From Pirellulales bacterium (lineage in GTDB: Bacteria > Planctomycetota > Planctomycetia > Pirellulales > JACPPG01), in contig DASXEJ010000266.1 of assembly GCA_036490175.1 (NCBI GenBank), positions 1-35,396 on the forward strand: DNA of 35,396 bases. The letters are read 5' to 3'. A program made the position numbers and the translations under genes. The notes beneath the pieces are model-generated. The model did not search any database, had not been told where the DNA came from, and was given only the letters and a program-made list of their open reading frames with translations. Positions 862-27,469 of this stretch are shown piece after piece (positions within the stretch are counted from its first letter, which is position 1; each line of letters begins with the position of its first letter).

Positions 862-1107
862 TAGTGACATTCTCCCCGTCTAGCGTCGACCAAACCGACG
901 CGACGATAGACCGCTTGTGCGGGGTTATTACTAAAACGAACATCAACCGTGATCGTGCGTCACTCGTTCATGCGAAGAAATGCTAATGATATGCATGGAA
1001 CGTTCTGCGTCCGATTGCGCAATGGCGACCCACCCTCCTTGACAAGAACGAGACGCTCAAGCTGTCAATAAGATCATGTACTGACGACGCACGACGCGAG
1101 ATCGCGG

Positions 1108-1671
1108 TTACTTGCGATCCATCTTGATGAAGTGCGAGGCGAGCGCGGCTGCGCCGAGAGCCAGGGCCGCTTTTCCCCAAAAGCTCTGCAAAATAGCTGG
1201 CTGCTTTTGAGCGATTTCGGTTGCCGCCTGGCCAAAAGCGCCGGGATGATTTTCCTGCGTGTAGCGGGCGACTTTGGCCACGTCGTGCGCGTCCATTTTT
1301 TGCGGGTCTTTGGTCTGCAGGTCGGGCACCTGGTCGAGCGGCGAATCCGCTGTGTCGCTGCCGCCCCCAAGTTTCTTCAGATGGTCCATTAAAATCGCGG
1401 CGACTGACGCCAAAGCGCCGGACGAAAGTTCCCCTAATGGGTTCGTGCCGCCTACGCCCGGCGTGACGTGGTCGGAATACTCTTTGGGATCCGTCTGTTC
1501 CGCGATCTTGGCAAAAATCTGCTGCAGTTTCTTGGGATCGAAGTTTTTGATCATGTCTTGCAGCCGCTGTAGGTCAGCCGAATCGGGCGAATCAAATTTC
1601 GCTTTTCCGTCTGAAAGCCGTTGCAGGTCGCTGTTACCGATAGCTGCGGCGATGTCCTGAAGAATTCCCAT
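1108..1671 (-). CDS. Hypothetical protein with C-terminal membrane segment
   Basis: This 187-residue protein starts at the ATG at 1671, which has AGGAG eight bases upstream; a GTG six bases further out lies too close to that site. The N-terminal half is charged and probably helical (QRLQDMIKNFDPKKLQQIFAKI). A Gly/Asp-rich linker follows, then a stretch rich in Ala, Gln and Lys, and then one hydrophobic helix near the C-terminus (about residues 165-182, WGKAALALGAAALASHF) ending in basic residues. It lies 50 bp downstream of the GlsB/YeaQ-like gene on the same strand, so the two probably share a transcript. I do not recognise the family. The neighbour suggests a stress or envelope role, which is inference only. 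Confidence 0.75.
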   Translation of the reverse strand: MGILQDIAAAIGNSDLQRLSDGKAKFDSPDSADLQRLQDMIKNFDPKKLQQIFAKIAEQTDPKEYSDHVTPGVGGTNPLGELSSGALASVAAILMDHLKKLGGGSDTADSPLDQVPDLQTKDPQKMDAHDVAKVARYTQENHPGAFGQAATEIAQKQPAILQSFWGKAALALGAAALASHFIKMDRK

Positions 1672-1721
1672 GGTCACTTCTCCTTGTTAATTGGTCGGAC
1701 TCGACGAATTGACAACAAAGA

Positions 1722-1976
1722 CTAAGCGGGACGTCGCGAAATCGCATGGTACAAGACGAGCACAAGGACCGACCCCACAACAGCAATCAGAATGCTGTAC
1801 AGGTTGAACCCTGTGATTCCTGAAAAGCCGGCGAAATGCGCGACGAATCCGCCGGCGACCGCACCCACTATGCCCAGCACAATGTCCATCAGCATGCCCT
1901 CGCCTTGCTTATTCACCAGCTTGCTGCCGATAAAGCCGGCGATGAGACCCAAAACCAGCCATGCAATGATTCCCAT
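1722..1976 (-). CDS. GlsB/YeaQ/YmgE-family stress-response membrane protein
   Basis: The 84-residue protein begins MGIIAWLVLGLIAGFIGSKL, the classic opening of the transglycosylase-associated protein family (GlsB/YeaQ/YmgE). It has three hydrophobic helices separated by short Gly-rich turns (VGAVAGGFVAHFAG) and the usual polar loop KQGEGM after helix 1. Length matches the family (80-90 residues). The ATG at 1976 has an AGGAG-type site a few bases upstream; the open frame extends about 130 codons further but that part is low-complexity shadow. Members are small inner-membrane proteins induced by stress, without a defined biochemical role. It is first in a probable two-gene unit with the hypothetical protein at 1108-1671. 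Confidence 0.9.
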   Translation of the reverse strand: MGIIAWLVLGLIAGFIGSKLVNKQGEGMLMDIVLGIVGAVAGGFVAHFAGFSGITGFNLYSILIAVVGSVLVLVLYHAISRRPA

Positions 1977-2620
1977 GGATAACTCCTCTGTGTTTGGAAT
2001 CGGTATCCGCTGGCGGCACCACAAAACTGCGCGGTTCAAGTCGCGCCGCGCACGAGGGGCAGTTTCAAAACCCACAGAGCTGCATTCAAATTTCGAACCA
2101 GGATTTCCCGATTGGGATTCGATGGTCCTCGCTCGGCAACACCGACGAATCGCAGCCGCCATTTTGAGGCTGTCAAGGGCCAGATGCAACTGGCTTTCGC
2201 AAGACAGCCGGTAGGCGCCGAATCCACTCTGAATGCCCGCCGCCGCATTCGACGTTGTAGAACCACCAAATGGACGATTTTCGAAAAAAAGTTCATCTTG
2301 CGATGCGACTAGCGGGACGAACTCCACGGAACGACTGATGGCCCTTCCCATCTCACAAAACGGAAGAGTTTCCGGCACGCGGCCGGAGTCTCATAAATGG
2401 GGTCGAGTTCTGCGAGTGCCGCAAAGGGTGTGAGATTGGTAAGCGTCCGCCTCGGATTCTGGTAATTTGGCAATCTTCGCCCTATCCTCAATGCGTTTTA
2501 GGGAACCGCCGGCAGGATGTGAACGTCGGTTTAAAAAGCCTGCCCTAGGCTGGGCGAACACGCCACAACTCCCAATGAGCACGGCGATATTCGAAATTGT
2601 TTTCTAGTCTCGAGGACAAA
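1977..2620. other. Intergenic region between divergent genes
   Basis: This 644-bp gap separates the minus-strand stress-protein unit from the plus-strand oxidoreductase gene. Open frames here are short, overlap on both strands and carry neither start signals nor recognisable motifs. It should contain promoters for both sides, but I see no convincing -35/-10 pair. Confidence 0.5.
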
Positions 2621-3946
2621 ATGAGCGGCAGCAACCAACCACACAAGAATCGCCGGACATTTATTAAACAAACGGGCGGATTGCTCGCCGGAGCAGGCCT
2701 CGGTCTGGCTCTGCCCACGATTGTGCCGCGCTCAGTGCTGGCAGGCTCTAAAGAGGGAGCTCCCAGCGATCGCATCAACGTCGGCATTATTGGCGTCCGC
2801 AATCAAGGCGGGGGCAATCTGGGCCGAGTGCTCGATAAGAAGTTCGAGAAAATCGCCCGAGTCATCGCAGTTTGCGACGTTGATACCGACGTGCTGGCCA
2901 TGGGCAAGGCCCGCGTCGAAAAGGCCAGCAAAAGCTCCTGCCAGGCATACGGTGACTATCGAAAATTGCTAGACGATAAAGATATTGATGCTGTTGTCAT
3001 CAGCACTCCCGACCACTGGCATGGTTTGATTACGGTCGACGCCTGCATGGCGGGAAAGGACGTTTATTGCGAGAAGCCGCTGTCGTTGACCATTGCCGAT
3101 GGCCAGGCGATGGTCAACGCCGCCCGCAAGATGAACCGCATCGTGCAAACCGGCAGCCAGCAGCGCAGCGACGATGGTTTTCGTCGGGCCTGCGAATTGG
3201 TTCGCAATGGAAAGCTCGGGAAAATCCACACTGTCCGGTGTGGCATCTCGGGCGTCAATCTGAAGGGCGAGCCTGTGCCCGATAGCGACCCGCCGCAAGA
3301 ACTCGACTTCGATTTCTGGCTGGGTCCTGCCCCGAAGCGGCCCTACAACGCGCAGCACGTGCACTATAATTTCCGCTTTTTCTGGGACTACTCTGGCGGC
3401 CAAATGACCAATTGGGGAGCGCATCACTTGGACATCGCCCAGTGGGGATTGGGAACCGACGATACCGGCCCCGTCTCGATCGAGGGACAGGCGCGCTACA
3501 ACAAGGACAACCTATTCGAAGTCCCGGAATGGTGCGAGGCGATTCATCATTACGCCAACGGCGTGAAGTTGATCGTTGGCCAAAGCGAAAAAGGGGGAAC
3601 GACGTTCGAAGGAACCAAGGGCACGCTGCACGTCGATCGCAAAGGCTTTACGTGCAATCCCAAGGAATTGGCGGACTCACCGATTTCTGCAGGCGACACT
3701 AAGCTTTACGCGAGCACGGATCACTTTGGTAACTGGTTCGACTGCATCAAGTCGCGGGACTTGCCAATTTGTGACGTCGGCATTGGACATCGCTCCGCGT
3801 CGATGTGCCACCTGGGAAACATCGCCATTCGCCTTGGGCGGAAGCTCAATTGGGATCCAATCAAGGAAGAATTTGTCGGCGATCAAGCAGCCAACGAAAT
3901 GATCGCACGCCGCTACCGTGCACCCTGGAAGAACCCGATCTCCTGA
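2621..3946 (+). CDS. Gfo/Idh/MocA-family oxidoreductase, Tat-exported
   Basis: The 441-residue protein has a twin-arginine signal (NRRTFIKQTGG, then a hydrophobic stretch ending near SVLAG), so it is probably folded in the cytoplasm with its cofactor and exported. A Rossmann dinucleotide-binding motif follows (VGIIGVRNQGGGN), with an acidic VCDVDTD at the end of the second strand. The family's catalytic Lys lies in CEKPLSL, and the C-terminal domain carries WGAHHLDIAQW. The family oxidises or reduces sugar alcohols and related carbohydrates with NAD(P); planctomycetes encode many exported members and the substrate cannot be read here. The ATG at 2621 has GAGGAC just upstream; an in-frame TTG at 2597 is less likely. 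The gene stands alone. Confidence 0.92.
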   Translation: MSGSNQPHKNRRTFIKQTGGLLAGAGLGLALPTIVPRSVLAGSKEGAPSDRINVGIIGVRNQGGGNLGRVLDKKFEKIARVIAVCDVDTDVLAMGKARVEKASKSSCQAYGDYRKLLDDKDIDAVVISTPDHWHGLITVDACMAGKDVYCEKPLSLTIADGQAMVNAARKMNRIVQTGSQQRSDDGFRRACELVRNGKLGKIHTVRCGISGVNLKGEPVPDSDPPQELDFDFWLGPAPKRPYNAQHVHYNFRFFWDYSGGQMTNWGAHHLDIAQWGLGTDDTGPVSIEGQARYNKDNLFEVPEWCEAIHHYANGVKLIVGQSEKGGTTFEGTKGTLHVDRKGFTCNPKELADSPISAGDTKLYASTDHFGNWFDCIKSRDLPICDVGIGHRSASMCHLGNIAIRLGRKLNWDPIKEEFVGDQAANEMIARRYRAPWKNPIS

Positions 3947-4259
3947 TCGCATTGCCCACCACAAGTGAAGAGTTACCGATAACCGTCGCGATTTGTTGAA
4001 ACACTCCGCGCAAGCACGTCGTTGAGGGATCCCGACAGTTTTAAGAACGAAGAGTATCAAAAGCTGCTGATGGATGCCCTGCAGAGCCTAATGGGGCAAT
4101 TTCTCCCATCGCTACGCTGACACTCTCCAGCGGCTCGCGGCTGTACGGCACTATAACTTTTGGTGGCGGTCCGACAGAAAGTGGCACCGTGTTCGTACTT
4201 GAAGCTCCAAAGCACGCGACGCGGCAATTGACGCTCGCCGGGATTCACCATCTCGCTGC
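3947..4259. other. Intergenic region with a possible short gene remnant
   Basis: This 313-bp gap lies between convergent genes. On the plus strand 4022-4120 reads as 32 codons from a TTG (RDPDSFKNEEYQKLLMDALQ, ending at a TGA at 4118) with protein-like composition but no start signal. It may be the decayed end of a gene or chance. No terminator hairpin was found. Confidence 0.3.
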
Positions 4260-5660
4260 TCATGGCTCAAGCGTCACTACTGTCCTCCGATACCGAACTA
4301 GGGATGGTTTCCCCTTGTCGCTCAGTTCCAGCACAACATGTAGGCTCGCGGGTCGATCCACCACCGGCGCGGTGAAACTCGTCGTGACACCTTCGGTCGC
4401 GTCGAGCTTACATTCACCCTGAAATGTTCCAGCCTCGGGATATAAATACCACGACATATGAATCACATCGTCGTCCGGATCACTCGATCCGGCCGCGGAC
4501 AGAACAACGCGTTCACCAGATTTTGCTGATACTCGAAGAATCGCCTTCGATCGATCATCGTTCAGAACTGCCACAGGAGGATGGTTCGCCGAGCCGATCG
4601 TATCGGCCACGCACCAATCTGCCCGGGCCGCGAAGTCGCTCTGAATCGCAACGGCCCAACGCGCCAGGGTATTCTCACGGCTGGTCGTTCCGTTCCACCG
4701 GTCTTGTGCATCGGCCCAATAATACTCGCGGTTATCCTCGTCCGTTTGTCGACTGTACCGCCCGCCCCAACTCCCCCAGGTCGGCTGCTCTGGGTCGTTC
4801 ATTCCCGTTGGCACGAGGTATAGGAAGGTCATTGTGTCCCCTTCCTTTTGCCGGTGCGTGGTGTTCAAGGGATACAGCTTTCCGAGTGCGCCGTGTGCAG
4901 TTCGCACATCGCGCTCTATGTCGAATCCTCCGGCAATCGCCGTCAGTCCCGAAAACGAGTGATACCATCGCTTGCCATTTTGCTGCGGACGAAAGGTATC
5001 GATCCACAATGCAAACGCCGGTGAGATCTCCCGAGTGTGTTCGCCGAACGCATCTGCCGATGCCAAGCGAAGTCGGCGTTTGAACTTCGCGTACCCCTCC
5101 GGGCCGCGCTCCTTGAGTACGCGTTCGAGCGCACGCCGGAGATTGTTTTTTCCACCCCCCGAAGCGGTTCCCCAATCCGCATACCATATCGGCCTGGGAT
5201 CGTCTCGATCCACGGCCGAGAGGATGCGTTCGACGCCGTCGTTCGAATCGTCATACCCGGCGACCGTCATCTTCCAAAGCGATTCGGATGTCGGATATCG
5301 CCCATCATGCTTGGAAAGATTGTTCCAGCAATCGCCATAAGCCGACACCATCGCTCGCACAATTCCCAGGCCTGTTCGCTCACGGTTTTTGTTCTCGCCG
5401 TTCTGGGCATGCGAGCGGTTGGCGACGATGCCTTCGATATCCCATTCGTTTGCATACAGAAGAAATCGCACCAGCGACTGTTCGTCATCCGGGTCGCCGC
5501 CTGCGTCAGTTTCAATGATCACCCGTAGGCGCGTCGCGTTTACGCCGAGCGATTCGTCACTGGCTGCAACTGTCCCAGCGACGCTGATTACGACTGCCGA
5601 TGCGATGACGACCAGCCTTCGGGCCATAATTGTTGGCACTGGAATTCCGCCTTTTTTCAT
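4260..5660 (-). CDS. Exported DUF1593 (Sde182-like, nucleoside-hydrolase fold) protein
   Basis: The start is uncertain between ATG at 5660 and ATG at 5627; the longer frame begins at a poor TTG (5738). The preprotein has a basic N-terminus and hydrophobic signal ending near VAASDE. The core opens with VIIETDAGGDPDDEQSLVRF, the Asp-rich metal-binding strand typical of nucleoside-hydrolase-like folds and of DUF1593. Further conserved-looking blocks are WYADWGTASGGG, WGSWGGRYS and a C-terminal beta-rich domain with AAGSSDPDDD, a PKD/cadherin-like turn seen in this family's C-terminal region. Named relatives include the cellulose-binding Sde182 protein of Saccharophagus, so a carbohydrate-related extracellular role is plausible but the substrate is unknown. 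Single gene, convergent with the oxidoreductase. Confidence 0.85.
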   Translation of the reverse strand: MKKGGIPVPTIMARRLVVIASAVVISVAGTVAASDESLGVNATRLRVIIETDAGGDPDDEQSLVRFLLYANEWDIEGIVANRSHAQNGENKNRERTGLGIVRAMVSAYGDCWNNLSKHDGRYPTSESLWKMTVAGYDDSNDGVERILSAVDRDDPRPIWYADWGTASGGGKNNLRRALERVLKERGPEGYAKFKRRLRLASADAFGEHTREISPAFALWIDTFRPQQNGKRWYHSFSGLTAIAGGFDIERDVRTAHGALGKLYPLNTTHRQKEGDTMTFLYLVPTGMNDPEQPTWGSWGGRYSRQTDEDNREYYWADAQDRWNGTTSRENTLARWAVAIQSDFAARADWCVADTIGSANHPPVAVLNDDRSKAILRVSAKSGERVVLSAAGSSDPDDDVIHMSWYLYPEAGTFQGECKLDATEGVTTSFTAPVVDRPASLHVVLELSDKGKPSLVRYRRTVVTLEP

Positions 5661-6065
5661 CTGCTGATTGTCCGATTGTCGCCGACGACCTGCGCGTCGG
5701 TCCCTAGAGCTTATATGACTGGGTCGGTAAACGGACAAGCTGCTCGATAGCGCGCAGGCAACAATGGCGCCGGGGTGACCAGCGTTCCCGAAAAGTCGTC
5801 AACGCTGGGACTGCGCCGTTTGAGGAACCAGGTTTGAGAGTTCAAATTCCCTTCGCCACCTTCACGGCAATCAACTGAGTGGATGAACTGTCGCTTCGCG
5901 CTGGGCAACACCTGGCAACGCGTCGGTGTGTCGGACGCGCGTCGGACCGAATCGCGCAAGGATCCGTTGAATATATTTTGCGAATTGCCTCTTGGCCCAT
6001 GAGCTTAGTGCCATCTTATTCCGGGCGTGGCCCTTGCCTGTTGTTTCGGCACTGAGCAAAACTGG
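5661..6065. other. Intergenic region, nothing recognised
   Basis: About 400 bp upstream of the DUF1593 gene and downstream of the phosphatase-superfamily gene, both on the minus strand. Short frames here are not supported by motifs or ribosome binding sites. The promoter of the DUF1593 gene should lie here but I cannot point to it. Confidence 0.4.
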
Positions 6066-7190
6066 TTACTTGGCGGCCGGCAAAACCTGGTTAATCGCAG
6101 GCCCTGAATTTGCAACGGCGCCGTGGTAGTTTTCGCCCAGAAGTGCCGCGAGCGTCGCTGCAATCTGACTTTGCGTCACGCGGTCGCAGTTTGTTCGCTC
6201 CCCGAGAGGCGGTGTGTCCGGCCCGAGAAATGCCATCCATATGTCTTCGGCTCCCTGGATATCCTTGCCATGATTCTTCCAGTCGGCCGGTCCCGAGCCA
6301 CGACCATGATCTGTCGAGATGATGAAAGTGGTCTTGTCGCGATACTGGTCAATCGACTGCATCGTTTCCCAAAGTCGTTGGATGTACTGATCGACAGCAT
6401 TGGCCGAATTCAACAAGTTGTCGTAGCGGCCGGCATGCCCCCAAGCGTCGGTTTCGAGAAAACCGACGAAAAGTACTCGTGGTTTGTGTCGCAGCAGATG
6501 TTCGCGCGCCGCCTGATACAGGAACGAATCGATGACTTCCGCGGAATTCGGCCGAGTGGTGTCCGCGATCAGGTCATTGAGTAGTTGCTGTCTCGGGTTG
6601 GGGTCCGGCTCAGGGAGAGGCTCCCAGCCACCCATCACGGGAAAGCCACATCGCTCACGGTTAATGATGTAGGGAATAACGTCCCAAGCGCTGTACGCGG
6701 CCACCTTGCCGCCAAACGCAGGCTTGCGGTGCAGCCATTCGAGGACGGTGAAGTTCTTGTTCGGCCTCTTCGCGTTGCTGTCGATCAGCGGATCGGCGAA
6801 GCCGGTCAGAATTTCATTGTAGCCCGGGTACGAAAACTTCATTGTGTTCGTGATCTGTGCCGAGCTGCCTTTTGGCTGGTTTCCATAAACCTGCCCTTCC
6901 CGAGCGATCTTCTTCCAGAAGAAGGGAAGCAGAGCTTCGCGGCGCTCTTCCGGAGTCTCGCGCCAGAACTTTTCTTCGATGGCCTTCGCGTCCGCGACGC
7001 CGCCATGTTGCTTGTTGATCAGCGCCTTTTCGGCGCCGCTAAAGACCTCTTGCCAGCGCAAGCCGTCGGTTGTGATCAGGACGATGTTCCGCGTCTTGAG
7101 GTCCGCCGCACGGACAGTGGTCGTGGCGAACAGCAGCACGATCAGGGCACAGTTTGCTATTCTTCGTAATCGATATTCGACGACTGACAT
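6066..7190 (-). CDS. Exported alkaline-phosphatase-superfamily hydrolase
   Basis: The 374-residue product has a signal peptide (hydrophobic ALIVLLFATTTVRAAD) and then the superfamily's metal site: NIVLITTDGLRWQEVF, where the Asp binds metal and the Thr three residues before GLRW-type turns or a nearby residue acts as nucleophile. SYPGYNEIL resembles the substrate loop of phosphodiesterase members. The second metal cluster is FLETDAWGHAGRY (Asp/His), followed by ISTDHGRG and WKNHGKD near the C-terminus. These residues place it with phosphodiesterase, phosphatase and phosphoglycerate-mutase-type enzymes rather than Cys-type sulfatases, because the C/S-x-P-x-R sulfatase signature is absent. Substrate unknown; location periplasmic or extracellular. 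Monocistronic. Confidence 0.85.
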   Translation of the reverse strand: MSVVEYRLRRIANCALIVLLFATTTVRAADLKTRNIVLITTDGLRWQEVFSGAEKALINKQHGGVADAKAIEEKFWRETPEERREALLPFFWKKIAREGQVYGNQPKGSSAQITNTMKFSYPGYNEILTGFADPLIDSNAKRPNKNFTVLEWLHRKPAFGGKVAAYSAWDVIPYIINRERCGFPVMGGWEPLPEPDPNPRQQLLNDLIADTTRPNSAEVIDSFLYQAAREHLLRHKPRVLFVGFLETDAWGHAGRYDNLLNSANAVDQYIQRLWETMQSIDQYRDKTTFIISTDHGRGSGPADWKNHGKDIQGAEDIWMAFLGPDTPPLGERTNCDRVTQSQIAATLAALLGENYHGAVANSGPAINQVLPAAK

Positions 7191-7933
7191 GAGTTGTTGC
7201 CTGCACGCGACTGCGATGCGCGGTTCACGATGCCCGACACGGCAGCGCTAGTCCGGCTTCGAAACTTATGGAGCAATGGTAGCTTGCCCTGCGCAAGTCG
7301 ACCAGCGTACGGAGGAGGGCCTGGAGACAAGATTCGAAGTTCCCTGATATCCGAAGCTGCCGAACGAGCGAATCGCATACCTCAAGGTCGCGCGAGCTAT
7401 CGGGAAGTTACCGGCGTAGCGAATCACAGCGTAAGTGGCTGCCATCCAGTTCTCTCAGTCGTTCGGCGACCCGCGTCGGTCAAATCGATCCAACCATCAA
7501 ACGACATTCGCATTTGCGCCGAATCTGTCCGCCTCAGTGGCCATTGTCCCAAGAACTCGTGTCGATGATCGGGATTCTTCGGAATCCCATCTGACGACCG
7601 TTTTTTACGAGTCGCGTGGAACAATCAACTCATCGCGCTCGCTGCCCACGTCGGCGTTGAACGCGGATTTCGACGTCTTGACATAGGTCTGTTCTGGGAA
7701 CAGCCGACAGCGGATGGGTGAGCGCATGTGGGCCGTGCACCAGGTATCGCCAACGTCACCACGCCATTCGCGCACGGCGTCGCGGTTCGCTTCCTCCGGA
7801 AGCTGTATAATGGCGGCGCAACCGCCTTCAAGAACTTGCCGGCTGTAAGCTACATTCGCGGCCAGCATTACTGCGTGCAGTGCAAACACGTCGGTCGCCC
7901 TTACATCCCCGCGAAGCAGCTGCTCCAAAAGGC
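7191..7933. other. Long region without a secure gene
   Basis: This 743-bp gap contains only weak frames. The best is on the minus strand (7605-7928, 107 codons from a TTG start; LHAVMLAANVAYSRQVLEGG, then IIQLPEEANRDAVREW). It has protein-like composition and G/C-biased third positions but no ribosome binding site or family. It may be a small unrecognised gene or a remnant. Nothing else stands out. Confidence 0.3.
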
Positions 7934-8449
7934 ATGACCATGAACGAAAACAAGCCGACTCGCCGCCTGTTCAGTGAAGCGGCGTTGCTCACAGCCATCA
8001 CGGCCTGGTTGCCGTGGACCAAGACCGAAGCCGAGCCTACGAACCAGTCGCAGCCCGAGCACGACAATGGTTGGCCAAAGGAGCCCGAGAAGCTGGTCAA
8101 GCCGCCGGATCAGAAGCTCGTACTGCACATAGTTGGCCATCAGATTGGATTCATGACCGATCAGGAGAAACGGGCAACTCGTGTGTTGAATAACACCCCG
8201 GAGAATATGGCGGCGTTCATCGGCGACGCTTGGTCGTACAAGCCGTTACACCGGCTCATCACCGGCCTTGCGCTGGGAGAAACAGCCGACGTCACTTTGC
8301 ATTACACGTTCCTTCCCGACGAGAACGACGACTATTCGCGCTACTTGGTCAGGCGTGAGTTTCAAATAACTCGTCACAGCTACGACGATCCATGTCCGGA
8401 TCTGTACTTGACCGACAAGCACGGCAAAGGCTGGGACGACTTAGCCTAA
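7934..8449 (+). CDS. Small exported hypothetical protein
   Basis: Two ATGs are close together (7934 and 7940); the protein is about 170 residues from either. The N-terminus reads PTRRLFSEAALLTAITAWLP, a pair of arginines followed by a hydrophobic stretch, so a Sec or Tat signal is likely. A Pro/Glu/Gln-rich linker follows, then a globular part with VLHIVGHQIGFMTDQEKR, VTLHYTFLPDEND and LVRREFQITRH. No family is recognised. It lies just left of the first 198-bp repeat and is transcribed towards it, with no partner gene. Confidence 0.6.
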   Translation: MTMNENKPTRRLFSEAALLTAITAWLPWTKTEAEPTNQSQPEHDNGWPKEPEKLVKPPDQKLVLHIVGHQIGFMTDQEKRATRVLNNTPENMAAFIGDAWSYKPLHRLITGLALGETADVTLHYTFLPDENDDYSRYLVRREFQITRHSYDDPCPDLYLTDKHGKGWDDLA

Positions 8450-8518
8450 CCACCGACTTCTCTGGACGTGGGGGCTCAGGACCGCAACGATCGCGACACG
8501 GCAATTGAGCCCGGACGG
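8450..8518. other. Short spacer before repeat R1
   Basis: This 69-bp stretch follows the stop codon of the exported hypothetical gene and precedes the palindrome that opens R1. It has no match to the sequence in front of R2, which is why I place the left edge of the repeat at 8519. Confidence 0.5.
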
Positions 8519-8540
8519 ATTCTGTACCGTGGTACAGAAT
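8519..8540. repeat. 22-bp palindrome in R1
   Basis: Arms ATTCTGTACC and GGTACAGAAT are perfect inverted repeats with GT between them. In R2 the same arms flank CG, which makes that copy fully symmetric. Conservation while the surroundings diverge suggests a protein-binding site, perhaps a recombinase core or regulator operator. This is inference. Confidence 0.7.
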
Positions 8541-8667
8541 CGGTTTGTAACCAGATGAAAGCGCCGTAAAATGTAGACTGTTACGGCATCGCCTTCGGTT
8601 GCCCAAGCTGTTCCAAAAACGCTGTATTTCAGGCCTTTTTCACGCACAATTGCTGCGGGCCGTTCGC

Positions 8668-8714
8668 GCGACTTCTAATCCGCAGGTTGCTGGTTCGATT
8701 CCAGCCGGGCGTAC
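8668..8714 (+). pseudogene. 3' half of a tRNA-Arg(TCT)-like gene
   Basis: The sequence contains an anticodon loop CTTCTAA (anticodon TCT), the 3' anticodon-stem strand TCCGC, a variable loop, a perfect T-arm (GCTGG, TTCGATT, CCAGC) and an acceptor strand CGGGCGT. No matching 5' half with a D-arm exists upstream, and the bases before the loop (CGCGA) do not pair with TCCGC. It is therefore not a functional tRNA but a tRNA-derived attachment-site fragment. Its reverse strand translates to RPAGIEPATCGLEV, a well-known spurious peptide. Confidence 0.75.
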
Positions 8715-8790
8715 TTCGCTGTCGGTACGGCGATGCCAAACGATCGCTGCGCAACTTGTTGCGTCATTTCCGCGCAGTCCGACATGGATC

Positions 8791-11328
8791 TCATTCGCCG
8801 GAATGAGCGACGGCTTTGATGGCATGCAAAAGCAGAACGGTGCTCTCGGGCCTAAAGTCGGGATGAGGGCTAAAAAGTATGACGGAACCCTTGCCATGTT
8901 TCGCAGCCACGATGGCGGGCGTCCCGCTCATTGTGTTTTTCTGACTTGGCAGCCGCCAGACTTCCTCGGCGAAATCCGCCAGCGAAACTACCGGCGAAGG
9001 TAAATGACGGGCCCACTCGCAAAGAACTGGTCCACTCGTGTAGGGAAGCTTGAGTTTGGACGGCGCTTCCGGAAATACGTGTGACCCGATCGGCGTTACC
9101 TGGATTGTCAGCTCTGCGGCGCCTCGATCGGCGAGCACCGCCAGGTCGCCATCACGTTCCGGATCCTTGCCGTTCATGGCCTGTTCATTGACGAGATTCA
9201 AGCCATAACCCGTGGTTGCCAGGTAGGCGCCCCCACATATTCCGACGTATCCGCCGCCGGACAAGACAAACGCGCGCAACTCGTCGAGACCATGCTCCTG
9301 TAAAGCCTGCGCCTTGTCCGCTGCACTTCCCCCGAAGACGACGACTACATGGTATGCTCGTGCACGCAGCGCTCCATCGTGAACCTTGGAGGGAGTTAGG
9401 CATTCGAAGGACAGCAGCGGATCGTGGCCGGTTCGGTCAACAAAACTCCGCAGGGTCCACAATTCCGCCTTGTCGAATGCCACAATGGCGACGCGCACCG
9501 GCTCTTCGCGGCGAGCGAACTTCGCCAAAGACGCGCGAAGATCCTGAATGGCCTGTGCCGCGGCGCGCATGGCGCTGGCTTCGGGCACGCTGACGTGATA
9601 CACGTTGATCGAGTAGCCAATACGCGCCTCTGGCCGCAATTGTCGAAAGCACGCAAACAGCGGATTCATTCCAAAGAGAGGAGTCAGGCCGATCGCGTAC
9701 CAGCCGGGGGTTATATCGCTCGGGTGAAAAAGCCGGGTGCCAGGCGGTCGGTCTTCGATGATGGTCCCGTGGAAGCCGAAATCCTCGGGCGAGGCATACG
9801 ATCCAAGGGCTACTTTTAAGTTATTCCGATCTTGATCGCATTTCTGCCACTCACCCAGACGAAGCGCATCCTGGCCCCAATCCAAGCTGCTTCCCAGCAG
9901 ATGTCTATGGCCATTCGTTGGTCCGCCGGCAAGGAGATTGAAAAACGAGAGACTATAGGGGTAGCAGCCGAGGCTGCCTACAACCAGCGTGCCTATCGCG
10001 ACGACGACACTCGCCCTCACGGCGCACGATTGCCTTGTTTTTGATGACGTCCAAACGACACCGAGTCGGCTTATCCACACATAAAAAAAGGGATATGCCG
10101 GAATCAAATATCGATAGTGAACGCTCATATTCGATTGCGACGCACATAGCAGAGAGACCACTACGATGGGCAGTGCCAGCGCTACTTCCGACGTCACATC
10201 TGCTCGACACCTTGGCGCCATCACAAACGCGATGAGCGCCAGTATGGCCAAGGCCAGCGTTCCGGAAGGCGTCTTGACCAGCGCCGCGTACGCATAATAG
10301 TACGACCATCCGCCGTGTTTCCACGTCCCGCCAAGATACGAATCCCACGGACGCTCAAAGTCTGCTGCTTGCACATCGATCCCTTCTATGTAATAGCGCG
10401 GCAGCGGCAGTGGCAGCGCACTCATGATCGTGTCGCGGAACCGGTTGCCAGGTTCTGGATTCTCGCTCGGCGGGTTGCCCGTCATTCTGCCGCTTATGAG
10501 TGCATAATCGCCGAGACGACGGCCTGTACCTTCAAAGTTATAAACCGCGTTCACCGTCACAACCGCTAATGTCAACAGCATGGCAAGCTGCCGGACAGTC
10601 GTGGCCGCGGAAACGATCCGCGCACCACGACTCGACAGCATATGCACCGCACAGACGACCACGACGACGCACGGCAACACGACCCACGTCAATTTCGTCA
10701 GCATGGCCAGGCCGCAGACGAGTCCGGCGATCGCGGCGCTGGAATATGACTGACCACGGACCCAGCGCAAGGTGACGTGTATAGCCGCGATGCCGAGCGA
10801 TGCCGCCGCCACGTCGGGATTGATCAAGTGCCCATGGCCCAGGATCATCGGAGAGAAACACCAAACGGTCATCGCAATCAATCCGGCGGCGCCGCCGAAC
10901 AGATCATAGCTCATGCGAAAGCAGATCCACGCTCCGAGCAGCGAGAAGGGAATGCATGCCCACCGCGCGACGGTGAATAACCAGGCGGACCGCGGACGAT
11001 TTGCCAACAAAAAGCCCTTTCCGGAAACCAGCTCCGGCCGTAGCGCCGGGTCTTGTGAAAAGGCTGACCAGTCAACCGATGGCGACATCGCCAGGATCGG
11101 CAATGAAGCGACAAGACGAACCAGAGGCGGATTTTGCCGGAAATAGTAGTAACTACCGGATTGCCAATGGCTTAGGCCAGCAGGCAGGTGAGCGATCTCA
11201 ATTTCTGTCGGGGCGTCGCGATAGCCGGCATAGGCCAGTAGCAAAGCGTGGGACAACAGGATTCCTATCGCGCCCGTGCGAAGGGAAGACCCTTTCCCAG
11301 TGCTAATCCATGAGGAATTGGCCGTCAT
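8791..11328 (-). CDS. GT39-like membrane glycosyltransferase fused to a BPL_N domain
   Basis: The 845-residue protein starts at the ATG at 11328, whose A is shared with the TGA stop of the upstream gene (TGATG), so translation is probably coupled. Residues 1 to about 580 are a multi-pass membrane domain resembling dolichyl-phosphate-mannose glycosyltransferases (GT39): first loop EIAHLPAGLSHWQSG, then RQNPPLVRLVASLP, and GGPTNGHRHLLGSSLDWGQD near its end. The acidic pair normally DE in loop 1 reads IE here. Residues about 612-845 match BPL_N, a class I glutamine-amidotransferase-like fold: VVVVFGGSAADK, SGGGYVGICGGAYLA with candidate nucleophile Cys near residue 698, and ILFSPHPDF. BPL_N is the N-terminal domain of eukaryotic biotin ligases; its bacterial role is unclear. 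Lipid-linked sugar transfer to exported proteins is inferred. Confidence 0.82.
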   Translation of the reverse strand: MTANSSWISTGKGSSLRTGAIGILLSHALLLAYAGYRDAPTEIEIAHLPAGLSHWQSGSYYYFRQNPPLVRLVASLPILAMSPSVDWSAFSQDPALRPELVSGKGFLLANRPRSAWLFTVARWACIPFSLLGAWICFRMSYDLFGGAAGLIAMTVWCFSPMILGHGHLINPDVAAASLGIAAIHVTLRWVRGQSYSSAAIAGLVCGLAMLTKLTWVVLPCVVVVVCAVHMLSSRGARIVSAATTVRQLAMLLTLAVVTVNAVYNFEGTGRRLGDYALISGRMTGNPPSENPEPGNRFRDTIMSALPLPLPRYYIEGIDVQAADFERPWDSYLGGTWKHGGWSYYYAYAALVKTPSGTLALAILALIAFVMAPRCRADVTSEVALALPIVVVSLLCASQSNMSVHYRYLIPAYPFFYVWISRLGVVWTSSKTRQSCAVRASVVVAIGTLVVGSLGCYPYSLSFFNLLAGGPTNGHRHLLGSSLDWGQDALRLGEWQKCDQDRNNLKVALGSYASPEDFGFHGTIIEDRPPGTRLFHPSDITPGWYAIGLTPLFGMNPLFACFRQLRPEARIGYSINVYHVSVPEASAMRAAAQAIQDLRASLAKFARREEPVRVAIVAFDKAELWTLRSFVDRTGHDPLLSFECLTPSKVHDGALRARAYHVVVVFGGSAADKAQALQEHGLDELRAFVLSGGGYVGICGGAYLATTGYGLNLVNEQAMNGKDPERDGDLAVLADRGAAELTIQVTPIGSHVFPEAPSKLKLPYTSGPVLCEWARHLPSPVVSLADFAEEVWRLPSQKNTMSGTPAIVAAKHGKGSVILFSPHPDFRPESTVLLLHAIKAVAHSGE

Positions 11329-14024
11329 CAATTGACCGGAGAGCTGACGGTGAAATGACGAGCATCGCGGTCGCCGTCCGCAAACGTGACATGACAGGTG
11401 ACAACGAAATGACGGTGTGCGGAGTCGGCGCTGCGCAGTAGCTCAACGAAGTAGCGCCCCTCGGGACCTCGGACAACACCGCATTCCAGCCCGTCAGGTT
11501 GAGCGGTGACGGCGATCTCTTTGATCGCCTCCTTAAACCACTCTCGCGTGATAACCTCGACTTTCGCACGCGCGTCACCGTTCAGCGTTGCCTCCGCGGG
11601 AGAGAACTCGATCCGCGCTTCGCGCGTTATCGCAAGGCGGAATTGCGCTTCCCGTCGCACTTCATTCGCTCGGACGGTAATGAGCGCGTGCAATTCGTTG
11701 TCATGAGATAATAGGTTCTCGGTCAGCTCCTTGGAGCGTTCCAGCACACATACAACGCGGTGCGACTCACCCGATGTTGGCGAGCTTGCTGCGGATTCCT
11801 CTGAGACCTCCTGAATCGATGCTTCGACGGCCTTCATGCTCGATTCCACCTCCAAGCCGTCACGAAGCTCTTGGGCAACGAACAAGCCAAGATCGGTTTT
11901 GTACTGCGGGGCATCGACATCTCTGTCCGTGATGCGCATTTCCGTCTCACGAGCGGACGATACGTGCATCGAAGGCGAGCCGTGGCCGTCGTGTCGCGTG
12001 CCGAAGATCGAAATTCTCTTCGAGCGTCCATCCGAAAATTGGGCCAGCAAATACTGCACGCGGCGCCCCTGCGGCCAGTCGCCGCGCGAAGTGCTGATTG
12101 TCAGCGGCTCTGCGGAATTTGCATCGATAATCTTTCTCTGCCAGCTCAAGCGGCCAAGACAGCCGCACGAGGAGTACATCTCAACTGCCACCGGCACGTC
12201 GGAGTTATTTTGCAGAGAGATCGTGGACTCGACAGATTTTGATGACGATGCCTCGCCGCCCACGCCAAATTCGCCCAAATCGATCGAAGCGGGCCGTATC
12301 TCCACCGTTTCCGAGCTCCGGGAGGCAACTCCGCGGTAAGCAAACAAGACGATGCCGTGCCGTGCCGCTAGGGCACCATCGATTTTGGCGATCTCGTCGG
12401 CGGAGACGTCATCGAGATACGTTACTCCTCGAGGAACGTCTGCGAGATAGACCCCTTTCTGGTTACGTGACAGCACGTAGTAGTGATCTCCACCTGAGAT
12501 CGGCAGCGCGAAAATCGCCACCATACCGGACCGAATACGCCGCAGATCGCGGATCGACACATCCCGTCGTCCTTCCGCCACAAGACCGTAGGCAGTTAGG
12601 ACACGTTGCAGACTATTCAGCGGGACGCCCTCTACTGATGGGACGAGGTTTTCGCTAACCAGGACCGGATTGTAAGGCACTCCCAGGATCGTCATCGTAA
12701 GGCCCGTTGCATAGAACGAACACTGGGTGATCCTCGCCTCGAACCGGCCGTCATGATCTCGCCACCAACCGTTGTCGAACTGGAATCTTGGGTTGGCGCT
12801 GGCGGGCTCGGCAACGCCGGCGCGACTTTGGTTGGCAACACCGCCGAGGAACGTGCCGAGTACCATGACGGCGGCAGCACCCCCCTTGAAGTGCTGAACG
12901 AACCGTCGGCCCCATTTGAGGATTACGACCAGCAACAACACGGCGACCACCGCCGGCAGAATGAACCGTCGACGATGCGCAACAATTTGCTCAGGGACCT
13001 TTAGACCATGGAAAACGGCAAATGCCTCGACCGCCTTTTTCTCGTCGACCGGATCTCCGGACACGGTGTAAAGTTGGCCGGCGACTTCGTCCACCATGTT
13101 GGTGCCTTTTTTCCATTCGATGATGAAATCGGCCTCGGTCAGCGGCCGGTTGACGGCCACATCCGAAAAGGTGTATTGAACGACCGGATCATAGGTAAGG
13201 TCTTTGGTTCGATGAAAAAAAGTAACGGTCTGCGGCACCCAAAACCCATCGATTTCTTGCAATTCATAACTAATCTTCTCCAACGACTCGCCCGCTTGTT
13301 CAGCGGCGGCGCGGGGGTCTTCAAGCCGGCTGGTGAGCACTTCCAGAACCGCGCCCGCCCGACCTTTCCCGGGCGAGAAGCGTATATGGGCAAACATGCG
13401 CAAGTCGCTTGCGGTGTCCTGGGCGGGCGTGACCGTGTCGAGCACGACAATCTGCCAGATGCCGTCGTCCCCTTCGGTGACATGCACCACGCCGTATTGG
13501 TCGATCTTGCTCTGTAGATACTGCGACAACGTGCGGGCCTGCTCGCCGTCGCCGAGCGGGAAGAAGTACGGAAAGAAATACCGCATCCCCTGCGTCGCAA
13601 AGCCCTGCGCCAAGACATTCGTGCTCTTGTCGGTCTTGATGAGCCCCATCGCCGGTTCCTTGTCCGGCGGGAGCGCATCTCCCGCGAGCTGCTGGTGCTG
13701 CTTGCGAATTACTTCCCCGTCGAACGTGACGATTTCCCGCACGCCGACCGTCTCGACATCACCGCTCGCGCGTTGAATGGCCTCGGTCGACAACCTAAAG
13801 CGACCGTTCGCGTCCAGTGCAAAGTGCGCAATTCCGTGCACGTCCTTTTGCTGGATCCACTGCTCGCGGCACGTCCAGCGAATCGCCGAGATCGCCTGTT
13901 CTTTGGCTCGAATGATCTTGAGCGCTGCATCGGGCGGAATTTCAGCGGATCTCGCGCTCTGTGGCGCAACGAATGCGATTTGGGCCGCCAATAGTGCGCA
14001 GAATGAGAGAACACCAAGTCTCAT
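11328..14024 (-). CDS. LolA-like / C39-like peptidase / DUF1573 fusion, membrane anchored
   Basis: The 898-residue protein starts at the ATG at 14024, preceded by an unusually strong repeated AGGAGG; the frame is open 38 codons further upstream without a good start. Residues 1-28 form a signal peptide. Residues about 30-330 resemble the outer-membrane lipoprotein carrier (LolA-like) fold (FSDVAVNRPLTEADF at the end). Two hydrophobic segments follow (about 354-371 and 381-398). Then comes a C39-like domain: candidate Cys435 in TQCSFYATGL, His514 in GGDHYYVLS and Asp529 in YLADVPRG, a plausible Cys-His-Asp triad although CG(L/P) is replaced by CSF. Residues about 580-665 are DUF1573-like with SSCGCLGRLSW, and a beta-rich tail ends the protein. 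It probably processes or handles exported substrates in the periplasm. Confidence 0.82.
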   Translation of the reverse strand: MRLGVLSFCALLAAQIAFVAPQSARSAEIPPDAALKIIRAKEQAISAIRWTCREQWIQQKDVHGIAHFALDANGRFRLSTEAIQRASGDVETVGVREIVTFDGEVIRKQHQQLAGDALPPDKEPAMGLIKTDKSTNVLAQGFATQGMRYFFPYFFPLGDGEQARTLSQYLQSKIDQYGVVHVTEGDDGIWQIVVLDTVTPAQDTASDLRMFAHIRFSPGKGRAGAVLEVLTSRLEDPRAAAEQAGESLEKISYELQEIDGFWVPQTVTFFHRTKDLTYDPVVQYTFSDVAVNRPLTEADFIIEWKKGTNMVDEVAGQLYTVSGDPVDEKKAVEAFAVFHGLKVPEQIVAHRRRFILPAVVAVLLLVVILKWGRRFVQHFKGGAAAVMVLGTFLGGVANQSRAGVAEPASANPRFQFDNGWWRDHDGRFEARITQCSFYATGLTMTILGVPYNPVLVSENLVPSVEGVPLNSLQRVLTAYGLVAEGRRDVSIRDLRRIRSGMVAIFALPISGGDHYYVLSRNQKGVYLADVPRGVTYLDDVSADEIAKIDGALAARHGIVLFAYRGVASRSSETVEIRPASIDLGEFGVGGEASSSKSVESTISLQNNSDVPVAVEMYSSCGCLGRLSWQRKIIDANSAEPLTISTSRGDWPQGRRVQYLLAQFSDGRSKRISIFGTRHDGHGSPSMHVSSARETEMRITDRDVDAPQYKTDLGLFVAQELRDGLEVESSMKAVEASIQEVSEESAASSPTSGESHRVVCVLERSKELTENLLSHDNELHALITVRANEVRREAQFRLAITREARIEFSPAEATLNGDARAKVEVITREWFKEAIKEIAVTAQPDGLECGVVRGPEGRYFVELLRSADSAHRHFVVTCHVTFADGDRDARHFTVSSPVN

Positions 14025-14358
14025 AACCCTCCTCCTCCTCAATCTTGGCAGACCTAACGATCCACGCCGCGGACCTACAGTCGACGTCGCCAGCAGCGAA
14101 GCCCTGGTAGGCGACACACTCCGTATGACGAAGGCCAAGCAATATACGGTTCCCCGGCCTGCTCCGATTGTTTAGGTCAGGCTAAAACGACCGCAGTACC
14201 GCGAACTGCAAATAAAGTCGGTCATTTCATCGACGATCCGCTGAATAGGTGCCCAGAGGCGAAATCCGTCTTTCCGTTGTGGGCGTTGCAACTTCAATCC
14301 TTAATCGCGCACGCGAACGCATGAGGAATCCGACGTGAGCAGCCGGCCCGACAGCAAC
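14025..14358. other. Spacer inside the cysteine-rich cluster
   Basis: This 334-bp gap separates the second cysteine-rich gene from the LolA/C39/DUF1573 gene on the minus strand. It ends in the repeated AGGAGG that serves the latter. I see no clear terminator or promoter; an internal promoter is possible given the length. Confidence 0.4.
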
Positions 14359-14883
14359 TCAGCCCTCTTTGACCAAACCTCCCTGATCCTGGCACTGAGT
14401 CAGGTTGCCAACCCATTTTTGTTGCATGGGCGCCCCGACGGTGCAGCCTGTCACCTTTCCGTTGGCATCGGTCGTGGGATTACATGTTCCCACGTTGACC
14501 TGACAGCAGAGAAACTGCTTGGCCTGGTAATTGTTGCGAACCAAGCCGCCCTGACAGGTAGTGTGGGCCTGGCCGCCGCACCCAATGTTTTGCGCAGCGG
14601 CGGCCCCACCGGCTCCACTGCAGGCCGCGGGAACGTCGTCGGCCGTCCCCATAACGCCATCCGGGCCCGGGCTGGCCGCCGTAAATTGGCATGTTGAGTT
14701 GGCCACGAAGCCACCCTGGCAGGCCGCTCCTGCAACTGGCTTTTGTGAGTAGCCCGCCGCCACGACCGACTTTAGTTCCGTCACATAAACTCGTTGGCCG
14801 GGCATTTCGTCCGACGAGAGATACAGCTCCACGAGCATCGCCGTCCCCAGACACGCGAGCGATATTGCCATCACCTTGTACAT
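14359..14883 (-). CDS. Secreted ten-cysteine protein, copy B
   Basis: This 174-residue protein starts at the ATG at 14883 with GGGAG seven bases upstream. After a hydrophobic signal (VMAISLACLGTAMLVELYL) the sequence SVVAAGYSQKPVAGAACQGG begins the mature-looking part. Ten cysteines follow, in the same order as in copy A, including a CC pair (FLCCQVNVGTC). Both copies share an Asp/Gly motif, PGPDGVMGTADD, of a type seen in extracellular proteins and suggestive of calcium binding. The C-terminus (WVGNLTQCQDQGGLV) is also shared. Ten conserved cysteines suggest up to five disulfides. I recognise no family. Position between a thioredoxin fusion and a C39-like fusion suggests it is their substrate. 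Confidence 0.8.
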   Translation of the reverse strand: MYKVMAISLACLGTAMLVELYLSSDEMPGQRVYVTELKSVVAAGYSQKPVAGAACQGGFVANSTCQFTAASPGPDGVMGTADDVPAACSGAGGAAAAQNIGCGGQAHTTCQGGLVRNNYQAKQFLCCQVNVGTCNPTTDANGKVTGCTVGAPMQQKWVGNLTQCQDQGGLVKEG

Positions 14884-15009
14884 CTGACGCTCCCTAAGGT
14901 TAGTGAAAATGGTTTTGATCGGGCAATGCAACACAGCCGCGCGCTAGCACCGAACGAGTGTCCGACTGCAGTACCGGCGTCCCCATAGGGCGTGAGTGGT
15001 CGTGAGCTT

Positions 15010-15540
15010 TCAACCCTCCGGAACCGCACCTCCCGCATCTTGACAAAGGTTCAGCGTCCCCACCCAAACGTCGGAGTATGGCCCATTGGTTCGACATGCC
15101 CTTACAGGACCACCTGGGAACTGGACGTTATAGCAGGTCCCCAAATTGACCTGGCAGCAGAAGAACGACTTGTTCTGATAGTTGGTGTTTGAGAGCGCTC
15201 CTTGACAATTCGTATGGTTCTGTCCCGTACATCCTCGATTGGTGTTCCAGCTTGGGCCGCCTACTCCCGAACAACTTGCCGGAGTATCGTCGGCCGTCCC
15301 CATTACGCCATCGGGCCCTGGCCCCGCGGCGGTAAAGACGCAGCTTTGCGTTGTCAGGTACGCCCCCTGGCAGGCGACTCCATTGACAGGCGACTGCGCA
15401 TACCCTGCTGCAACAGTCGACTCCAAGTCGCGATCCGACGAAATTTGCCCGGGAAGTCGCTCGCTGCTTACGTCCGTAGTTCCGACGCCATACCAAGTGA
15501 GCACTGCTGCCGCGGCCAAAGCGCAAATACCGGTCTTCAT
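15010..15540 (-). CDS. Secreted ten-cysteine protein, copy A
   Basis: This 176-residue paralogue of the protein at 14359-14883 starts at the ATG at 15540 with AGGAG eight bases upstream. The signal peptide is GICALAAAAVLTWYGVG-like. The shared core is STVAAGYAQSPVNGVACQG, then PGPDGVMGTADDTPASCSG, FFCCQVNLGTC and WVGTLNLCQDAGG. All ten mature cysteines align with copy B; residues between them differ freely, indicating selection on the cysteine framework and the Asp/Gly motif. The two copies are tandem, 126 bp apart, so they arose by duplication. Function unknown. Alternatives are a surface structural protein, an adhesin or a peptide effector; nothing in the sequence decides. Confidence 0.8.
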   Translation of the reverse strand: MKTGICALAAAAVLTWYGVGTTDVSSERLPGQISSDRDLESTVAAGYAQSPVNGVACQGAYLTTQSCVFTAAGPGPDGVMGTADDTPASCSGVGGPSWNTNRGCTGQNHTNCQGALSNTNYQNKSFFCCQVNLGTCYNVQFPGGPVRACRTNGPYSDVWVGTLNLCQDAGGAVPEG

Positions 15541-15607
15541 ACAGGTTTCTCCTTAGTGTAAACGCACTGCATGTAAGTCGCTGATTTTCGAGAGGAATTT
15601 AACATCG

Positions 15608-16597
15608 TCACTGCGACCATTCGGAATCGGAAGAGGTGCCGGCCACGATCCCCTCATCTAACTGAATAACTGCTGGAGTGTGCGCGAACCAGTCTCGATC
15701 GGCCGTAAGTCGTCCCCTCGCCAGAACACGGGTGCTGGCGTCAGCACGCTGGGTGTTCACGTCGTCAAAGGGGGGCATCTCGATAAGAGCCACGCGATTC
15801 GTGTGGTCGGCTCCCGCCGATTCGCGAGCCGCCTCCTCGATCTTGGCGATCAGCGCCCGGCACTTCCGGCAATCGTGATGGTGCAGCACTATGGTCCAGC
15901 GGCCACTGGTCAACGACTCCCCGATGTCGATGTGGCCCTGAAGTGGAAATTGCCTGCCGATCCACTGGTTGGGGTCGAGCACAACGAGCGAAGAAACACC
16001 AAGGCGCTCGCCATCAGCAAGTAGCGCCGACGGCCCGCCATTGTTCATCGCCAATGCCGTCGGGATTCCAGAAGCCACAAACGCACTGCAGAAAAGTGCT
16101 ACACGCCAGGTTCCACTTCGACTTTCGGCAAGCGGCGGCTCTTGCGCGACATTTCGCCGCGGACGAAGCTTCCAGAAGAAGGCCGTGGCCACGACATCCA
16201 TCGCTAGCACCAACCACGGGTTAACCGGCATGCTTCCAAAGCAACCGCACGAGTCGTCGCCTGTTACGCCGCGATATAGTGCGACAGCAATGAAAATGCT
16301 GAACGTTATGATGGCAATCTGGCGAACAGGTTCCTGGTACAGCCCAACGACAAGAGCCAGGCCCATCGCGATTTCCCACTCGACCACAACGATGAGAAAC
16401 CACCGTGTGGTCAGAATATCGGTTTCGTTCAGTGGCCCTGTGGCCAGTTGATAGGCCTTGAACGTGGCAGCCGTGAGAAACAGCACACCGGCTACGACGC
16501 GAAGGGTGTCGTAGCTGGTCCAGCAATGGCCGCGACGATTGACGTCAACGGCGGCATGGCTGCTGAGCAGCGTGTCGGCGTCCCTCAGTCCGTCCAT
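15608..16597 (-). CDS. MauE/DoxX-like membrane protein fused to a thioredoxin-like domain
   Basis: The 329-residue protein starts at the ATG at 16597 with AGGGG upstream. Residues about 28-147 hold four hydrophobic segments and the motif DSCGCFGSMPVN (Cys117, Cys119), typical of MauE/DoxX-family redox membrane proteins. A further hydrophobic segment lies near 165-183. The remainder is periplasmic: DPNQWIGRQFPLQGHID, then WTIVLHHHDCRKCRALI with a CxxC redox pair (Cys243, Cys246), and a strand near HTPAVIQLD where thioredoxin folds have their cis-Pro. The family moves electrons or disulfides across the membrane, as MauE does for methylamine dehydrogenase maturation. As first gene upstream of two ten-cysteine proteins, it is the likely oxidase or isomerase for them (inference). 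Confidence 0.85.
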   Translation of the reverse strand: MDGLRDADTLLSSHAAVDVNRRGHCWTSYDTLRVVAGVLFLTAATFKAYQLATGPLNETDILTTRWFLIVVVEWEIAMGLALVVGLYQEPVRQIAIITFSIFIAVALYRGVTGDDSCGCFGSMPVNPWLVLAMDVVATAFFWKLRPRRNVAQEPPLAESRSGTWRVALFCSAFVASGIPTALAMNNGGPSALLADGERLGVSSLVVLDPNQWIGRQFPLQGHIDIGESLTSGRWTIVLHHHDCRKCRALIAKIEEAARESAGADHTNRVALIEMPPFDDVNTQRADASTRVLARGRLTADRDWFAHTPAVIQLDEGIVAGTSSDSEWSQ

Positions 16598-16660
16598 TGT
16601 GCCCCTGAGCCCCGGAAGCTTTGACTGCGCTGGCCAACATTCATTTGATGAGATCGGATC

Positions 16661-16688
16661 AACATAGCGGAATGCGACACAGTGTCAA
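16661..16688 (-). promoter_or_regulatory. Sigma70-like promoter for the leftward cluster
   Basis: On the minus strand TTGACA (16688-16683) and TATGTT (16666-16661) are separated by 16 bp. Transcription would start near 16654, about 57 bases before the MauE-thioredoxin gene at 16597. Seen by eye; not scored. Confidence 0.5.

Positions 16689-24801: not shown

Positions 24802-27469
<2,668 letters not shown>

What the first reader, a model, noticed from the sequence alone, without database searches (positions are those of the whole stretch)
8519..8716. 198-bp direct repeats with half-tRNA ends bracket 11.5 kb
R1 and R2 have equal length and order but only about 70 percent identity, so they were not made by one recent insertion. 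They may be two related attachment sites that collected elements in tandem. The reverse strand encodes the spurious RPAG(F/I)EP..CGLEV peptide, a hallmark of tRNA-derived sites in these genomes.
Basis: partly seen in the sequence, partly recalled or inferred. Interest (0 to 1): 0.62.

Follow-up and report, generated by a model that had tools for sequence, protein, structure and literature searches.

The report
Leftover landing marks of mobile DNA
The two look-alike 198-base stretches are the far-end scars left when mobile DNA islands inserted one after another into the middle of a single arginine tRNA gene; this is a known way bacteria collect new genes, seen here in a poorly studied group of Planctomycete bacteria.

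Summary
The repeats are real. R1 (8519-8716) and R2 (20228-20425) are 77% identical and in the same orientation, with 11.5 kb between them. Each is a ~150-bp arm followed by the 3' half of tRNA-Arg(UCU), starting at the anticodon loop; only the right end is tRNA-derived. The genome has a third copy and one intact tRNA-Arg(UCU) gene. Full copies otherwise occur only in one congener and one other family.

Best explanation: distal attachment ends (attR) of islands inserted in the anticodon loop of tRNA-Arg(UCU). In four relatives the intact tRNA and a same-orientation 3' half lie on one contig, 10-68 kb apart. Close members of one tyrosine-integrase clade occur only in genomes with R or R-like arms. 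One congener copy runs arm, 3' half, integrase, which is what tandem accretion predicts.

R1 and R2 are not copies of each other: R1's arm is closer to a copy in another species (85%) than to R2 (72%). The window has no integrase, so the R1-R2 module is a stranded or trans-mobilised passenger. Solo 5' halves also occur. This is a new member of a known kind. Linkage of the window to the intact tRNA, on another contig, was not shown.

The parts
8519..8669 (+). R1 arm, the element-end (attR, P-type) arm; starts with palindrome 8519-8540
   Evidence: nhmmer profile of 8 copies, 193.7 bits; palindrome covariation
8670..8716 (+). R1 core: 3' half of tRNA-Arg(UCU); crossover region CTTCTAA at 8672-8678, T-stem still pairs
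   Evidence: 96% to the intact tRNA-Arg(UCU) of the same genome, C239:12395-12440
20228..20378 (+). R2 arm, the element-end (attR) arm; starts with palindrome 20228-20249
   Evidence: nhmmer 205.6 bits; 81% arm identity to congener copy G003:C78a
20379..20425 (+). R2 core: 3' half of tRNA-Arg(UCU), CTTCTAA at 20381-20387; T-stem no longer pairs, so it has decayed
1..8516 (.). Segment left of R1, inferred to belong to the element that R1 ends; Gfo/Idh/MocA oxidoreductase, Sde182-like hydrolase, phosphodiesterase; G+C 56.8%
   Evidence: no integrase found
8717..20227 (.). R1-R2 module: PMT-like/BPL_N fusion (8791-11331 -), 936-aa protein with no family hit (11328-14138 -), two small Cys-rich secreted-looking proteins (14359-14934 -, 15010-15540 -), MauE-like (15608-16597 -), DUF1559 (16903-17976 +), esterase (18054-19016 +), GYF_2 (18973-19947 -)
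   Evidence: Pfam and NCBIfam; syntenic homologue in G003:C49 beside tRNA-Leu(UAA) and an integrase
20426..35396 (.). Segment right of R2, inferred chromosome: amtB, katG, DUF2585 and others; joined by a 141-bp contig overlap to C95 (54 kb) with no further R copy
   Evidence: 76-85% DNA matches in congeners; contig overlap; R census

Best explanation
R1 and R2 are attR-type attachment ends of genomic islands that inserted one after another at the anticodon loop of tRNA-Arg(UCU). A tyrosine integrase recombines the 7-bp overlap CTTCTAA in the tRNA gene with an attP that carries a replacement 3' half. The tRNA is rebuilt at the near end, and the displaced 3' half ends up at the far end behind the element's own ~150-bp arm. 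Each R is therefore the arm of one element plus the 3' half left by the event before it. R2 most likely borders the ordinary chromosome. The 11.5-kb R1-R2 segment is an older tandem element or passenger that has lost, or never carried, its integrase. Shown: structure, anticodon-loop boundary, complete island examples in relatives, association with one integrase clade, an arm/3' half/integrase junction. Inferred: the sequence of events for R1 and R2, the physical link to the intact tRNA on contig C239, past mobility of the module.
For: (1) Homology to the intact tRNA starts at the anticodon loop and runs to the 3' end; the ~150 bp before it is not tRNA. (2) Intact tRNA-Arg(UCU) and a same-orientation 3' half share a contig in G005 (61.8 kb apart), G017 (68 kb), G049 (53 kb) and the complete genome G027 (10.4 kb). 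(3) R-like arms (62 bits) end the G005 island and occur in G007; in both, the integrase beside the intact tRNA belongs to the clade of the integrase directly behind R in congener G003:C102 (41-59% identity). (4) Of 57 genomes, only G003, G005 and G007 have close members of that clade (over 600 bits; next best 387), and its wider relatives mostly sit beside tRNA genes of other isotypes. (5) R1's arm is closest to G003:C78b (85%) and R2's to G003:C78a (81%), against 72% between R1 and R2, so they reflect separate events. (6) Palindrome and T-stem covary (14 double-change cells against 4.2 in shuffles). (7) Right of R2 congeners match at 76-85%; left of it, apart from R itself, mostly at 66-74%.
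Against: No integrase in the window, and no close cognate integrase in this genome (best 312 bits, beside a tRNA-Lys half). The intact tRNA is on another contig, so no complete island is seen here. R copies in this genome and in G003 lie on several contigs with unrelated right flanks, including a 480-kb and a 178-kb contig, which a single compact array does not explain without later rearrangement. Gene order between congeners is poorly conserved, so no clean empty site was found.
Confidence: 0.83

Rival explanations
1. R is a small dispersed repeat of about 200 bp (MITE- or SINE-like) that carries a half-tRNA and moves on its own; the genes between the copies are incidental.
For: Copies lie in unrelated neighbourhoods on several contigs, have a hairpin at one end, and most lack an adjacent integrase.
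Against: The right end is always cut at the anticodon loop, as at islands with an integrase. The tRNA halves carry different T-stems, most still pairing, so they come from different tRNA donors and not from one replicating unit. Left flanks (R1 with G003:C121) and right flanks (C78a with C63) can each be shared beyond the R boundary. Copy number is low: 3 in this genome.
Confidence: 0.08
2. The tRNA gene is truly split: 5'-half and 3'-half loci are both expressed and joined in trans into a working tRNA-Arg(UCU).
For: Solo 5' halves exist in this genome (C261, C296) and in G004, G024, G033, G034 and G053; G053 has halves but no intact gene was found.
Against: This genome has an intact gene. G004 and G024 have a 5' half and an intact gene but no 3' half. 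R2 and the C296 copy have broken T-stems. The 5' halves fit the mirror-image integrases on the 5' side of the tRNA.
Confidence: 0.02
3. R1 and R2 are a segmental duplication, one copied from the other inside this genome.
For: Equal length, order and orientation.
Against: R1's arm is 85% identical to a copy in another species but only 72% to R2; the flanks of R1 and R2 are unrelated.
Confidence: 0.03
4. R is a conserved small-RNA gene: promoter-like TTGAAA-N16-TAAAAT, then a hairpin ending in CTTTTTC, beside a chance tRNA fragment.
For: By eye, a promoter-like pair and a terminator-like hairpin lie in the arm; the first hairpin covaries.
Against: No Rfam match. The arm is tied to the tRNA half and to an integrase clade, which attachment sites predict. 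Expression was not tested. It could be true as well as, not instead of, the attachment-site role.
Confidence: 0.04

Closest known systems
tRNA/tmRNA-gene genomic islands as defined by Islander (PMC4383910)
   Same: A tyrosine integrase inserts at the anticodon loop; the island restores the tRNA and the displaced fragment marks the far end. Islander lists 3,760 islands with a 3' fragment, 159 with a 5' fragment, and 125 tandem arrays of two or more.
   Different: Here the window holds only the far ends; the intact tRNA and integrase are on other contigs or absent, and the arm before the fragment is conserved over about 150 bp.
Dehalococcoides ssrA genomic islands (PMC3146451)
   Same: Multiple tandem islands bounded by displaced repeats of one RNA gene, with a conserved motif just before each repeat and some units without an integrase.
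   Different: Those use a serine recombinase and the tmRNA 3' end; these use tyrosine integrases and the tRNA-Arg(UCU) anticodon loop.
tRNA-dependent lysogeny of actinobacteriophages (PMC10865867)
   Same: Integration at a tRNA gene with element-borne tRNA genes in play. G003 has no intact tRNA-Arg(UCU) outside an array of 14 or more tRNA genes, and the G005 island carries a 37-tRNA array.
   Different: In those phages the host tRNA is not rebuilt; here islands with an intact tRNA at the near end rebuild it, and dependence was not shown.
Tycheposons and other cargo islands at tRNA genes
   Same: Cargo genes collected at tRNA genes by tyrosine recombinases, with integrase-less units (from general knowledge; papers naming them listed).
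   Different: Different host phylum and integrases; no sequence link was tested.

Membership tests
tRNA-gene genomic island (Islander definition) | tRNA fragment in the same orientation as an intact copy on the same replicon | tested here: inconclusive
   Met on single contigs in G005, G017, G049 and G027. In this genome the intact gene is on another contig.
tRNA-gene genomic island (Islander definition) | Fragment is an end piece cut at a known sub-site (anticodon loop, T loop or 3' junction) | tested here: met
   All copies start at CTTCTAA and run to the 3' end.
tRNA-gene genomic island (Islander definition) | Integrase gene inside the island | tested here: not met
   None between R1 and R2 or elsewhere in the window. 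Met in relatives: G005, G007, G003:C102.
Tandem accretion array | Two or more displaced fragments in a row, with an element between them | tested here: met
   Window R1/R2; G003:C78, 5.7 kb apart; G053:C89, 13.8 kb apart with an RND efflux module.
Tandem accretion array | Each array member has its own integrase | tested here: not met
   Only G003:C102 shows arm, 3' half, integrase. R1-R2 would be a passenger (CIME-like) unit.
Integrase clade using this site | Close integrase present in genomes with R or R-like arms and absent from others | tested here: inconclusive
   G003, G005 and G007 have it (over 600 bits) and no R-less genome does; this genome and G053 have R arms without it.
Dispersed small repeat (MITE/SINE-like) | Many near-identical copies moving as a fixed unit | tested here: not met
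   3 copies in this genome, 68-74% arm identity, differing tRNA donors.
Split (trans-spliced) tRNA gene | Both halves present and no intact gene in the same genome | tested here: not met
   An intact gene is present in this genome, G001 and G004.

The most novel reading that the evidence does not exclude
In these Planctomycetes one tRNA-Arg(UCU) anticodon loop is used from both sides. One integrase clade rebuilds the 3' half and leaves solo 3' halves (R); another carries the promoter and 5' half and leaves solo 5' halves (L). Arrays thus grow in both directions, and in some genomes (G003, G053) the host gene is lost and an element-borne tRNA array may supply the tRNA.
Probability: 0.3. Interest if true: 0.55.

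Novelty: new member of a known kind. Interest (0 to 1): 0.36.

Why it matters
It gives concrete landmarks (a ~200-bp attR arm and its integrase clade) for mapping mobile islands in large Planctomycete genomes, where mobile elements are poorly charted. It shows that ordinary-looking metabolic or secreted-protein modules there can be bounded by tRNA attachment scars. The paired 5' and 3' scars at one anticodon loop make it testable whether islands accrete on both sides of a single tRNA gene.

Tried and rejected
Plasmid and phage collections: no full R match; phages gave only tRNA-Arg-like stretches. Viral-contig pattern scans for R, L and a joined attP form: no R, and the other hits show no tRNA half or arm around them. 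A shared chromosomal flank behind all R copies: not found. Empty sites through congener synteny of the R2, C296 and C121 flanks: gene order too scrambled. tRNA-splitting without repair: dropped as the general rule once integrases were found on the 5' side of the tRNA with matching 5'-half scars. The G047 and G020 'halves' are contig ends and were excluded. Contig-end overlaps to place C239 next to the window: none; in this genome only C266 to C95 is joined.

Full report
Observation. R1 (8519-8716) and R2 (20228-20425) are in the window as described: 198 nt each, same strand, starts 11,709 nt apart, 77% identical over 204 aligned columns with E 1.7e-37. Most of the difference is in the first ~150 nt (72% identical); the last ~47 nt are 90% identical. 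No whole tRNA or Rfam family is present in the window. Only the right end is tRNA-derived.

What the sequence is. In the same genome (G000; the window is contig C266) there is a third copy at C296:21140-21336 and one intact tRNA-Arg(UCU) at C239:12365-12438, which shares only the last 46 nt with R, from the anticodon loop CTTCTAA to the 3' end. R is therefore an arm of ~150 nt plus the 3' half of tRNA-Arg(UCU). Among 57 relatives, full copies occur in congener G003 (C78 twice, 5.7 kb apart; C121; C102; a decayed one at C63) and in G053 of another family (C89, with a second bare 3' half 13.8 kb away). Weaker R-like arms occur in G005 and G007. A scan of 84,980 species found the half-tRNA motif only in G053's public record and in Botrimarina hoheduenensis, with this genome itself possibly left out. 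The arm begins with a palindrome whose two sides change together (five pairs with double changes), and the T-stems of the tRNA halves also covary. Taken together there are 14 double-change cells against 4.2 expected from shuffles, and the structure collapses when slid by one column.

How it most likely works. In G005, G017, G049 and the complete genome G027, an intact tRNA-Arg(UCU) and a 3' half lie on one contig in the same orientation, 61.8, 68, 53 and 10.4 kb apart, the classical signature of an island that rebuilds the tRNA at one end and displaces the 3' half to the other. The integrases beside tRNA-Arg(UCU) fall into several groups. One group (G005, G007a and G003:C102; 41-59% identity; Phage_integrase domain) goes with R-type arms. 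In G003:C102 the order is R arm, 3' half, integrase 160 bp on, which is the junction expected between two tandem elements. A search of 57 genomes found close members of this group (over 600 bits) only in G003, G005 and G007, and more distant members (387 bits and below) mostly beside tRNA genes of other isotypes or their exact halves. R1 and R2 are then the far ends of two events. The arm comparison pairs R1 with G003:C78b and places R2 nearest G003:C78a, so they are not copies of each other.

The two intervals. No integrase is found in the window. The R1-R2 module encodes a PMT-like/BPL_N fusion, a large protein without family hit, two small Cys-rich secreted-looking proteins, a MauE-like protein, a DUF1559 protein, an esterase and a GYF_2 protein. 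A syntenic module in G003:C49 lies next to tRNA-Leu(UAA) and an integrase gene, and a partial one in G003:C55 has the same tRNA and integrase, which suggests it travels with tRNA-associated elements. To the right of R2, congeners match at 76-85% DNA identity; to the left, apart from R itself, matches are mostly 66-74% and sparse. The right side continues by a 141-bp contig overlap into C95 (54 kb), which has no further R. I therefore read R2 as the island/chromosome border and R1 as internal.

Mirror image. Solo 5' halves that stop at CTTCTAA and continue into a different arm were found in this genome (C261, behind a gene that looks like a RecQ-type helicase; C296, with an unrelated arm), G004, G024, G033, G034 and G053. 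Integrases of another group lie on the 5' side of the intact tRNA here and in G007 and G024; in G053 a weakly similar ORF lies directly before a 5' half. The simplest account is elements that carry the promoter and 5' half. Islander reports 159 islands with 5' fragments against 3,760 with 3' fragments, so this is uncommon but known. No genome here has the intact gene, the integrase and the 5' half on one contig, so this part is inferred.

Limits. The intact tRNA and the window are on different contigs, congener gene order is scrambled, the R copies have unrelated right flanks, and this genome lacks a close cognate integrase. Several copies on large contigs require rearrangement after accretion or more than one former tRNA locus. 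A promoter-like pair and a terminator-like hairpin in the arm were seen by eye and not tested.

Verdict. A well-understood phenomenon, displaced tRNA ends of tandem islands (compare the tandem ssrA islands of Dehalococcoides), in a new host group with a new arm and integrase clade. New member of a known kind; moderate interest.

Noticed in passing
window 24617-24758: Sequence downstream of katG matches several places in congener G003 at 78-82%, some at contig ends, so it belongs to another dispersed repeat family.
   Followed up: no
L090:13154-18700 (G005:C5) and L163 (G003:C142): Arrays of 37 and at least 14 tRNA genes in similar order, the first inside the 61.8-kb island at tRNA-Arg(UCU); the G003 array holds the only intact tRNA-Arg(UCU) found in that genome.
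   Followed up: partly
L169:13625-13665, L170:5608-5653, L166:7021-7063, L168:4668-4710: Solo 5' halves of tRNA-Arg(UCU); all but the L170 one are followed by a similar arm with a GGGTGTCAGTGACACCC-like palindrome further on.
   Followed up: partly
L080:1018-11321 with tRNA-Leu(UAA) at 11753-11839 (G003:C49); L081 (G003:C55): Homologues of the R1-R2 gene module lie beside tRNA-Leu(UAA) and an integrase gene at two loci of one genome.
   Followed up: partly
L075:6391-11359 (G053:C89): The segment between the two tRNA-Arg halves in G053 carries an RND efflux system (HlyD_D23 and ACR_tran).
   Followed up: no
window 14359-15540: Two tandem small Cys-rich secreted-looking proteins without any Pfam or NCBIfam match, next to a MauE-like gene; possibly an oxidatively matured secreted-peptide cluster.
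   Followed up: no
L166 downstream of position 7063 (G024:C176): Genes behind the 5'-half arm look by eye like a DUF6527/ThiF-type/multiubiquitin set, suggesting defence cargo (family search not run).
   Followed up: no
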